This document shows, piece after piece, positions 49,989 to 51,684 of a DNA stretch of 64,000 nt. Where the stretch lies: NCBI GenBank assembly GCA_945893365.1, contig CAMDED010000019.1, forward strand, positions 1 through 64,000. Reading direction: 5' to 3'. Source of the DNA: Candidatus Sulfopaludibacter sp. SbA3. Lineage in GTDB: Bacteria > Acidobacteriota > Terriglobia > Bryobacterales > Bryobacteraceae. Below the pieces are notes generated by a model. It was not told where the DNA came from. It searched no databases and was given only the letters and a program-made list of their open reading frames with translations. Position 1 is the stretch's first letter. Each line of letters begins with the position of its first letter. A program made the position numbers and the translations under genes.

Positions 49989-50633
49989 TTACGAAGGGCG
50001 AAACCCGAGTTTCCGTATGGATGACCGGCCTGTCGCGGCCGGGGAGTTTGTAGCGATCGCTTTGGCATGGATACGCTCGCCCTGTGTCCAGGCGATCCAC
50101 CCGGAGCCGAGCGCGACCCGGTCTCCGCCGGAGGACTGAACTTCGTGTGGGGCCGAGTCCGCAGGGTCGATCCAAAAGACGGTGGAGTTCGTGGCGACGG
50201 CGAGTAGAGAGCCGTCCACGGCGCAATCCTGCACCCGGCCCTTGAGTGGATACGAAGCTCCGTTAAGATCCATAATGTCATCCGGCCGATTGGGTGGGGA
50301 ACGCACCGAAGGGTTGCCGGGAAGACCGCTACAGGCGGTGTTGCCCTCTTCTTTCCTAGGGCAGGCGGCTTTGATAGGACGCTCAATCCCGGTCGTCAGA
50401 TCGAAAGCATGCGCACCCTCGTTGTCGCAGAAGGTGAGCGCATCGCCGGCAAGGCGCAGAGCGTAAGCCTCGCCTCGAGACGGAGCGTCGATACTTTTTT
50501 TCGCTGGGGCGGTTGAGGCTTGAGGAGACGTTTTGGTGGGAATGGATTCGCCATCGGTGGGCTTAGACGATCTGCCATACGGCGACGGGCAAGCGCAAAG
50601 TGCAAGGGTGATCGACACGAGGAGATAGCGCAC
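49989..50633 (-). CDS. Putative lipoprotein with propeller-like strands
   Basis: A 214-residue protein beginning MRYLLVSITLALCACPSPYG, a short signal with a lipobox-like LCAC. A Ser/Thr/Pro-rich linker (to about 55) is followed by two Cys-containing strands and blade-like repeats such as GSLLAVATNSTVFWIDPADSA and RVALGSGWIAWTQGERIHA. I do not recognise a named family; similar lipoproteins occur in Myxococcota, from memory. It lies 172 bases downstream of the muramidase on the same strand and shares its lower GC, suggesting the two travelled together. Confidence 0.6.
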   Translation of the reverse strand: MRYLLVSITLALCACPSPYGRSSKPTDGESIPTKTSPQASTAPAKKSIDAPSRGEAYALRLAGDALTFCDNEGAHAFDLTTGIERPIKAACPRKEEGNTACSGLPGNPSVRSPPNRPDDIMDLNGASYPLKGRVQDCAVDGSLLAVATNSTVFWIDPADSAPHEVQSSGGDRVALGSGWIAWTQGERIHAKAIATNSPAATGRSSIRKLGFRPS

Positions 50634-50805
50634 GATGTTACCTTTGCCGGCGTTAGGTTCGGCGGCTCATCATTGGCATACAGACACTGTGGATCGGAAG
50701 CCGGGACCAATCTCGACACCTCCCGCGAAGCAGCCCCATTCGCGGCGGGCGGCGGAGCGTGGCCGAAACTCGAACCTTGACGCTCTTACGCAGATCCCGG
50801 TCCGA

Positions 50806-51684
50806 TCAGACGGCGAAAGCGGCATCGATCTTCTTCTTCTGGGCAGTCATGCTTTTAGCATAATCGGCCTCCGCACCAGTGTAGTAGCCGGCTTCCTTCA
50901 AGCTCTTGGCGACGCCGGCACAGTTTCCGCCGTTGACCTCGGTAACGTAATTGGGATTTTTGTTCGCGATCTTCTTGTGGTGTTCCAACCATATCTGGAC
51001 GCCCTCCGTGAGGGAGGGATACGCGCGAAATCGGCATTGGCGGTGCGGCGGTTGAAAGACAACCACCTTTTTCCCCGCAGGGCAGGACCAGCCCTTTTCC
51101 CTGATTTCTTCGTCGGTGGCAAATCGGGCAAGACCGGCGGATTTGGCGATTTGGTCGTCGGCCTCTTTGGGGGAATCGCATTCCCAAACGTTCTTGAGGT
51201 ACATGTGCAGCTTATCCTCTCCCGCCTTAACGTTACCCAGATTCCAATTGAAGCAGTACCTGCCTCCACCGGTTTCGTGCATGAATTGAGCGGTGAGGGT
51301 TCGCGCGCCGGTTTCAGTCAGGTCCTTCCAATCCGTCTTTAGCGCATCGACTACTTCGCCAGGGTTTGGAATGGTATTCTTTGTGGGCACTTCGTTGGGG
51401 CTAGAGGTAAACTTCTTGCCTGGACCGGAGGACGCGCTCGCATTTAGAGCTTTGAGCGTCGGGCCGCCAGGATCGATGCGGCCGTCGGGCGATTCCGATT
51501 TGAGTACGCGGCGTTGGAAATCCTCAATGACTTCGATGGTGAGACCATCGCAAACGCCGGTAACGGGCAGAGGATCGTGTGGGGTGAGGTGGCCAACGCA
51601 CGCGTTGAGGAGCGTTTGAATGACGTTCACATCGGCCTGGCGATTGACACCGCCTTTGCCGACCGATGCTTCAATGTTGTGCAT
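50806..51684 (-). CDS. Peptidoglycan-binding and glucosaminidase/muramidase-like protein
   Basis: A 292-residue protein without a signal peptide. Residues about 1-85 form a peptidoglycan-binding-1-like domain (GKGGVNRQADVNVIQTLLN, then IEVIEDFQRRVLK). A linker leads to a lysozyme/FlgJ-like domain with AQFMHETGGG (candidate catalytic Glu near 137), CFNWNLGNVKAG and RAYPSLTEGVQIWL. The GxGGxNxxxDVxxVQ-type entry is frequent in phage-like and secretion-system wall hydrolases that lack a Sec signal. GC is visibly lower than its neighbours. Paired with the lipoprotein at 49989. Confidence 0.72.
   Translation of the reverse strand: MHNIEASVGKGGVNRQADVNVIQTLLNACVGHLTPHDPLPVTGVCDGLTIEVIEDFQRRVLKSESPDGRIDPGGPTLKALNASASSGPGKKFTSSPNEVPTKNTIPNPGEVVDALKTDWKDLTETGARTLTAQFMHETGGGRYCFNWNLGNVKAGEDKLHMYLKNVWECDSPKEADDQIAKSAGLARFATDEEIREKGWSCPAGKKVVVFQPPHRQCRFRAYPSLTEGVQIWLEHHKKIANKNPNYVTEVNGGNCAGVAKSLKEAGYYTGAEADYAKSMTAQKKKIDAAFAV

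What the first reader, a model, noticed from the sequence alone, without database searches (positions are those of the whole stretch)
49989..51684. Wall hydrolase and lipoprotein island: possible effector and immunity pair
A signal-less peptidoglycan-binding muramidase-like protein is followed by a small lipoprotein, both of lower GC than all neighbours. Wall-degrading effectors of contact-dependent or phage-like secretion often lack Sec signals and are paired with a periplasmic or lipid-anchored immunity protein. No secretion genes are in the window, so this would be an orphan module. It is the best candidate here for an undescribed system.
Basis: inference. Interest (0 to 1): 0.6.

Follow-up and report, generated by a model that had tools for sequence, protein, structure and literature searches.

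The report
Cell-wall toxin and its lipoprotein antidote
A soil acidobacterium carries a wall-cutting enzyme next to a gene for a matching protective lipoprotein; relatives sit inside or beside the type VI secretion genes that bacteria use to stab rivals, yet no such weapon was found in this genome or in two less complete genomes of its genus, so how the toxin would leave the cell is an open question.

Summary
The two genes are exactly where stated. The hydrolase (50806-51684, -) has no signal peptide, a PG_binding_1-like N-terminus and a C-terminal GH73/FlgJ-type glucosaminidase fold with an invariant candidate catalytic Glu. The next gene (49989-50633, -) is a lipobox protein predicted to be a small beta-propeller. 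Only the hydrolase is low in GC. The C-terminal domain and the lipoprotein are inherited as a pair in every genome where both sides can be read (window, G050, G063, Methylosinus), even where the N-terminus is replaced by an unrelated module. In Methylosinus sp. Ce-a6 the pair lies directly after tssF-tssG-tssH. Two N-terminal modules and two toxin domains (GH73, VanY) occur in all four combinations, each toxin with its own partner. The N-terminal domain occurs in 46 of 237 family genomes, with toxin classes that map onto distinct secreted partners. I conclude it is a polymorphic type VI-type effector/immunity pair. TssC, TssF and Hcp were not found in this genus, so current delivery here is unexplained. 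Toxicity and protection were not tested.

The parts
50806..51684 (-). Candidate effector, 292 aa, no signal peptide: PG_binding_1-like N-terminal module plus GH73-type glucosaminidase domain
51421..51684 (-). N-terminal module (residues 1-88), shared by polymorphic relatives in 46 of 237 genomes of the bacterial family and by T6SS-linked proteins of Proteobacteria; candidate loading/trafficking domain
50806..51423 (-). C-terminal toxin domain (from residue 88), GH73/FlgJ-like fold; 69, 59 and 52% identical in G050, Methylosinus and G063
51274..51276 (-). Codon of Glu137 in AQFMHETGGG, invariant in the five homologues aligned; candidate catalytic acid (with the NLGNVK motif, residues 148-153)
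   Evidence: invariant columns; catalytic role inferred from the GH73 family
49989..50633 (-). Candidate immunity lipoprotein, 214 aa; homologues adjacent to the hydrolase in G050, G063 and Methylosinus
50589..50633 (-). Signal peptide and lipobox Cys15
50049..50501 (-). Mature domain (residues 45-195), predicted small beta-propeller with cysteines 69, 91, 101 and 137 invariant
50634..50805 (-). Intergenic gap of 172 nt between the two genes (24 nt in G050, a few nt in G063, 4-nt overlap in Methylosinus)

Best explanation
The two genes are an effector/immunity pair of the type VI secretion kind. The first gene encodes a cytoplasmic two-module protein: an N-terminal PG_binding_1-like module that serves loading or delivery (inferred), and a C-terminal GH73 N-acetylglucosaminidase that cuts the peptidoglycan of a cell receiving it in the periplasm (fold and motif shown by prediction, activity inferred). 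The second encodes a lipid-anchored beta-propeller protein in the producer's own periplasm that binds and blocks the enzyme, so that the cell survives attack by kin or leakage (pairing shown, binding inferred). The pair belongs to a modular set in this bacterial family in which N-terminal modules and toxin domains recombine while each toxin keeps its own secreted partner. No T6SS was found in the window's own genome or in two incomplete congeners, so here the pair is an orphan: either a leftover that still gives protection, or cargo of another route.
For: Module swap: the hydrolase domain with its lipoprotein occurs with two different N-termini: PGB-like in the window and G050, 'MANF' in G063 and Methylosinus. 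The same MANF module carries a VanY domain with the VanY-class partner in G130 (63% and 46% identity to the own-genome C98 pair). In Methylosinus, TssF, TssG and TssH (Pfam) are followed by hydrolase and lipoprotein homologue (40% over 189 aa, E 1e-35), overlapping by 4 nt. Toxin classes map onto distinct partner families: GH19 5/5, C70 protease 4/4, M15/VanY 4/5, a further class 4/4, GH73 2/2 of those with a readable close neighbour. A secreted/lipoprotein gene follows domain genes more often than background (13/52 against 29/363, p = 7e-4). On plasmids the domain lies in T6SS, VgrG, PAAR or Rhs contexts in 5 of 7 regions, with an exported-looking next gene in 6 of 7. An orphan lipoprotein without hydrolase occurs in G046. 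Fold: GH73 (4qdn Z 9.5, FlgJ Z 8.2-8.9). Lipoprotein is propeller-like, as Tsi1 is a partial propeller (PMC3391265).
Against: TssC, TssF and Hcp are absent from the window's genome (96.65% complete) and from two incomplete congeners. No T6SS gene was found within about 5 kb of any of 60 domain loci in the family. Presence of the domain and of TssC are only mildly correlated (37/46 against 119/191, p = 0.013). Several domain proteins have no conserved secreted partner. Nothing here shows enzyme activity, toxicity, binding or secretion. The hydrolase model is low in confidence (mean pLDDT 53) and its N-terminal module was not modelled confidently. Foldseek alone gave no good match for it.
Confidence: 0.86

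Rival explanations
1. The pair is a defensive leftover: the genus lost or never had a T6SS, the lipoprotein is kept because it protects against GH73 effectors of neighbours, and the hydrolase is hitch-hiking or decaying. (This rival concerns present use in this host; it accepts the effector/immunity origin.)
For: No TssC, TssF or Hcp in the genus. An orphan lipoprotein without hydrolase is kept in G046. In G065 the related locus has a truncated effector of 113 aa and no lipoprotein was found, so such loci do decay.
Against: The window hydrolase is intact with all aligned invariant residues. Substitutions against G050 are far more frequent at synonymous sites (pS 0.75, pN 0.19). In the VanY pair of the same genus the effector is as constrained (dN/dS 0.14-0.21) as its partner (0.18-0.25).
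Confidence: 0.35
2. [quoted passage not shown]
For: Three phage-sheath-type genes lie in one operon-like block at G000:C3:22658-29715, with tail-tube, baseplate and ATPase-like neighbours by eye. Hydrolase genes are intact although no T6SS was found.
Against: No protein with the N-terminal domain is encoded in the C3 region read. The two congeners that also carry the VanY pair gave no sheath match, though both are incomplete. No published link between this domain and eCIS was found.
Confidence: 0.12
3. Phage or prophage endolysin, or a programmed lysis cassette, with an unrelated lipoprotein downstream.
For: Signal-less wall hydrolases with PG_binding_1 domains are common in phages (own knowledge); a weak PHROG endolysin match (E 0.11).
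Against: No match in 50,697 phage records. Cognate, class-specific secreted partners and T6SS neighbours are not features of endolysins.
Confidence: 0.03
4. Effector of a bacteria-killing type IV secretion system (Xanthomonadales type), which also pairs wall hydrolases with lipoprotein immunity proteins.
For: Similar logic: toxic effector plus cognate immunity protein (PMC10933484 and PMC6759196, found, concern such T4SS effectors and immunity proteins).
Against: Those effectors carry a C-terminal XVIPCD signal (own knowledge); here homology to GH73 relatives runs to the C-terminus, leaving no room for it. Neighbours of relatives are T6SS genes.
Confidence: 0.03

Closest known systems
Tse1/Tsi1 of Pseudomonas aeruginosa (T6SS amidase effector and periplasmic immunity protein)
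   Same: Signal-less wall hydrolase with an adjacent exported inhibitor; the inhibitor is a partial beta-propeller with disulfides (PMC3391265), as the window lipoprotein is predicted to be propeller-like with four invariant cysteines.
   Different: Enzyme class differs (GH73 glycosidase against NlpC/P60 amidase). Tse1 is a single domain without an N-terminal module. The window host has no detected T6SS. No sequence match to solved structures was found for the lipoprotein.
WHIX, MIX, RIX and PIX polymorphic T6SS effector classes
   Same: N-terminal secretion module plus swappable C-terminal toxins; for WHIX these include FlgJ-like, GH19 and glucosaminidase domains (PMC12135965).
   Different: The N-terminal modules here are PG_binding_1-like or the unnamed 'MANF' module. 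Membership in WHIX or the others was not tested with a model.
PG_binding_1/LysM proteins of Hcp islands in Pantoea (PANA_2363, Pagg_2194)
   Same: PG_binding_1 proteins proposed as T6SS wall-degrading effectors (PMC3235180).
   Different: They carry LysM domains; the window protein has a GH73-type domain and no LysM match. Whether their PG_binding_1 domain is the same subfamily was not tested.
FlgJ/GH73 glucosaminidases
   Same: Fold of the toxin domain (Z 9.5 to 4qdn, 8.2-8.9 to FlgJ-type structures) and the Glu plus NLGNVK motif.
   Different: No flagellar context; the sequence is below the Pfam cut-off.

Membership tests
T6SS wall-hydrolase effector/immunity pairs | Effector without a signal peptide | tested here: met
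   Upstream stop directly before the ATG
T6SS wall-hydrolase effector/immunity pairs | Cognate exported immunity protein encoded next to the effector and conserved with the toxin domain | tested here: met
   Window, G050, G063 and Methylosinus
T6SS wall-hydrolase effector/immunity pairs | Homologous pair encoded with T6SS structural genes | tested here: met
   Methylosinus tssF-tssG-tssH directly upstream; not so in the window or in the Acidobacteriota loci read
T6SS wall-hydrolase effector/immunity pairs | A T6SS in the same genome to deliver it | tested here: not met
   TssC, TssF and Hcp not found in the window's genome; TssC is present in G046, G050, G062 and G063. It is therefore filed as a relative of such pairs, not as a working T6SS effector of this organism
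T6SS wall-hydrolase effector/immunity pairs | Periplasmic toxicity, neutralisation and T6SS-dependent export | not testable with these tools
   Needs bench work
Polymorphic toxin systems | Exchange of N-terminal modules while toxin and immunity stay together | tested here: met
   Two N-termini by two toxins, all four combinations
Polymorphic toxin systems | Each toxin class linked to its own immunity family | tested here: met
   Five toxin classes map onto five partner families; other classes show no conserved partner
GH73 glucosaminidase | Fold and active-site motif | tested here: met
   VIA Z 9.5 to 4qdn, 106 residues, rmsd 2.9, on a model of modest confidence; Glu137 and NLGNVK invariant
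GH73 glucosaminidase | Pfam PF01832 score above cut-off | tested here: inconclusive
   22.4 bits against 30.2
eCIS effector | Encoded in or beside the eCIS cluster | tested here: not met
   No domain protein in G000:C3:1-52000; the pair is on contig C19
Phage endolysin | Phage relatives or phage neighbourhood | tested here: not met
   No match in the phage collection; neighbours read as housekeeping genes
Xanthomonadales T4SS effector (X-Tfe) | C-terminal XVIPCD domain | tested here: not met
   GH73 homology runs to the C-terminus; definition from own knowledge
MIX, FIX, RIX, PIX, WHIX | Presence of the named N-terminal domain | not tested
   No models for these domains were at hand

The most novel reading that the evidence does not exclude
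The PG_binding_1-like module is a general loading domain for contractile injectors, and in this T6SS-free genus it feeds the eCIS or another unrecognised route, so that effector/immunity pairs move between machine types by swapping N-terminal modules.
Probability: 0.13. Interest if true: 0.78.

Novelty: new variant of a known kind. Interest (0 to 1): 0.55.

Why it matters
Interbacterial weapons of Acidobacteriota, abundant soil bacteria, are little described in the papers searched. This pair gives a concrete, testable set: an N-terminal module that predicts effectors in 46 of 237 family genomes, several toxin classes each with a candidate immunity family, and a natural swap series that separates delivery module from toxin. 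It also raises a clear question: why intact wall toxins persist in a genus with no detected T6SS.

Tried and rejected
T6SS genes near the domain proteins in the bacterial family: none found. Lipoprotein in the wider phylum: only the window's own hit among 396 genomes. Toxin domain in the Methylosinus family: only Methylosinus itself among 298. Toxin domain, lipoprotein and MANF module on plasmids: no match. Sequence search of solved structures: only chance matches or none. Foldseek with the hydrolase model: no good match, the model being weak. Considered and rejected: phage endolysin, killing T4SS effector, housekeeping FlgJ. The idea that low GC marks both genes as one island was dropped, since the lipoprotein has normal GC.

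Full report
What is there. Two minus-strand genes lie at the stated coordinates: a 292-aa protein at 50806-51684 and, 172 nt downstream, a 214-aa protein at 49989-50633. The first has no room for a signal peptide. Its residues 16-59 match PG_binding_1 and residues 204-281 match Glucosaminidase, both weakly. The second matches no Pfam, NCBIfam or PHROG family and satisfies the lipobox pattern at Cys15. The hydrolase has the lowest GC of the 23 genes called in the last 24 kb (0.561); the lipoprotein (0.614) does not stand out. Flanking genes read as ordinary chromosomal genes, for example a GlmU-like nucleotidyltransferase, a PQQ/BamB-type propeller protein, an aldolase-like protein and an ABC transporter (by eye, for the propeller).

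A polymorphic set. In the own genome the first 85 residues recur in a second protein, on contig C98, with a VanY/M15 C-terminus and its own exported partner. Across 237 genomes of the family the module occurs in 46, often in several copies, with GH19, M15/VanY, C70/C2 protease and glucosaminidase C-termini. Grouping C-termini and neighbouring genes independently gives a near one-to-one map: GH19 with a 'DCQPC' exported protein (5/5), C70 with another lipoprotein (4/4), VanY with a third (4/5), a further class with a fourth (4/4, with the partner gene in opposite orientation in three of them and still adjacent), and GH73 with the window's lipoprotein (2/2). A conservative test of 'next gene same strand within 150 nt, at most 300 aa, signal peptide or lipobox' gives 13/52 against 29/363 background (p = 7e-4); it leaves out the window pair (gap 172) and the inverted pairs. 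The signal-peptide rule is a crude one of my own. Other classes have no conserved partner, including a group with Gly/Lys-rich tails followed by SET-domain-like proteins.

Toxin and partner travel together. The GH73 domain was found in G050 (68% overall), in G063 and G062, and in Methylosinus sp. Ce-a6, an alphaproteobacterium. G050, G063 and Methylosinus have the lipoprotein homologue immediately downstream; G062 ends at a contig edge inside the gene. In G063, G062 and Methylosinus the N-terminus is not PGB-like but another module, here called MANF, 30% identical between the phyla. MANF is also joined to a VanY domain in G130, followed by the VanY-class partner (63% and 46% identity to the C98 pair). 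Thus two N-terminal modules and two toxins occur in all four combinations, and the partner always follows the toxin. G046 has the lipoprotein with no hydrolase match. G065 has a truncated 113-aa MANF remnant and no lipoprotein match.

Link to type VI secretion. In Methylosinus the order is TssF, TssG, TssH (Pfam E 3e-132, 1.5e-86 and ClpB-type AAA domains), hydrolase, lipoprotein, the last two overlapping by 4 nt. The window's N-terminal domain was found on plasmids of Sagittula (directly after a tssBC-hcp-tssEFGH cluster), Pantoea (beside a T6SS cluster) and three Pseudoalteromonas (Rhs, PAAR and in one case VgrG islands), and on two Sphingomonas plasmids without such neighbours. In six of these seven the next gene encodes an exported-looking protein of 129-242 aa.

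Folds. The lipoprotein model is confident over residues 45-195 and aligns to beta-propellers (Z about 13, 142 residues, rmsd 3.1). Because targets are about twice as long, it is a half-size or four-bladed propeller (inference). Tsi1, the immunity protein of the T6SS amidase Tse1, is likewise a partial propeller with disulfides (PMC3391265). The hydrolase model is weak (pLDDT 53) but residues 105-292 align best to GH73 and FlgJ structures, which agrees with the Pfam match and the conserved Glu and NLGNVK motif.

The unsolved part. TssC was found in 156 of 237 family genomes but in none of the three of the window's genus; TssF and Hcp are also absent there. The host genome is 96.65% complete; the other two are 86% and 73%. 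The VanY pair is nonetheless conserved in all three, with dN/dS 0.14-0.21 for the effector and 0.18-0.25 for the partner. The host does carry an eCIS-like cluster with three sheath genes, but it encodes no protein with this module. So I state the T6SS kinship with high confidence and the present route of delivery as open.

Shown: gene positions, domain architecture, pairing, module swapping, T6SS neighbourhood of relatives, absence of T6SS markers in available genus genomes. Predicted: folds and lipobox. Inferred: catalysis, toxicity, binding, periplasmic protection, and the role of the N-terminal module.

Noticed in passing
G000:C3:9876-29715 (loci L107, L108): eCIS-like cluster in the host genome with three phage-sheath-type genes close together plus tube, baseplate, spike and ATPase-like genes (the last four by eye).
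   Followed up: partly
G000:C98, L002:1495-3050: Second effector/partner pair of the host: PGB-like module plus VanY domain, followed with 4-nt overlap by a 274-aa exported protein; the pair is also in both congeners.
   Followed up: yes
L058, L076, L085, L086, L091, L096: Proteins with the same N-terminal module but mostly Gly/Lys-rich low-complexity tails, each followed at once by a SET-domain-like protein (by eye); role unknown.
   Followed up: no
L067, L070, L073, L075: Stand-alone 119-120-aa versions of the module in one genus, always beside an 800-aa exported protein.
   Followed up: no
L135:1501-1842 (G065): MANF-type effector truncated just at the start of the toxin domain, with the partner gene apparently lost too.
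   Followed up: partly
L056:4657-6126 (G008): Module embedded in a longer protein next to a large protein rich in Glu/Ala/Ser, in a genome with a phage-type sheath but no TssC match; a possible eCIS link worth reading.
   Followed up: no
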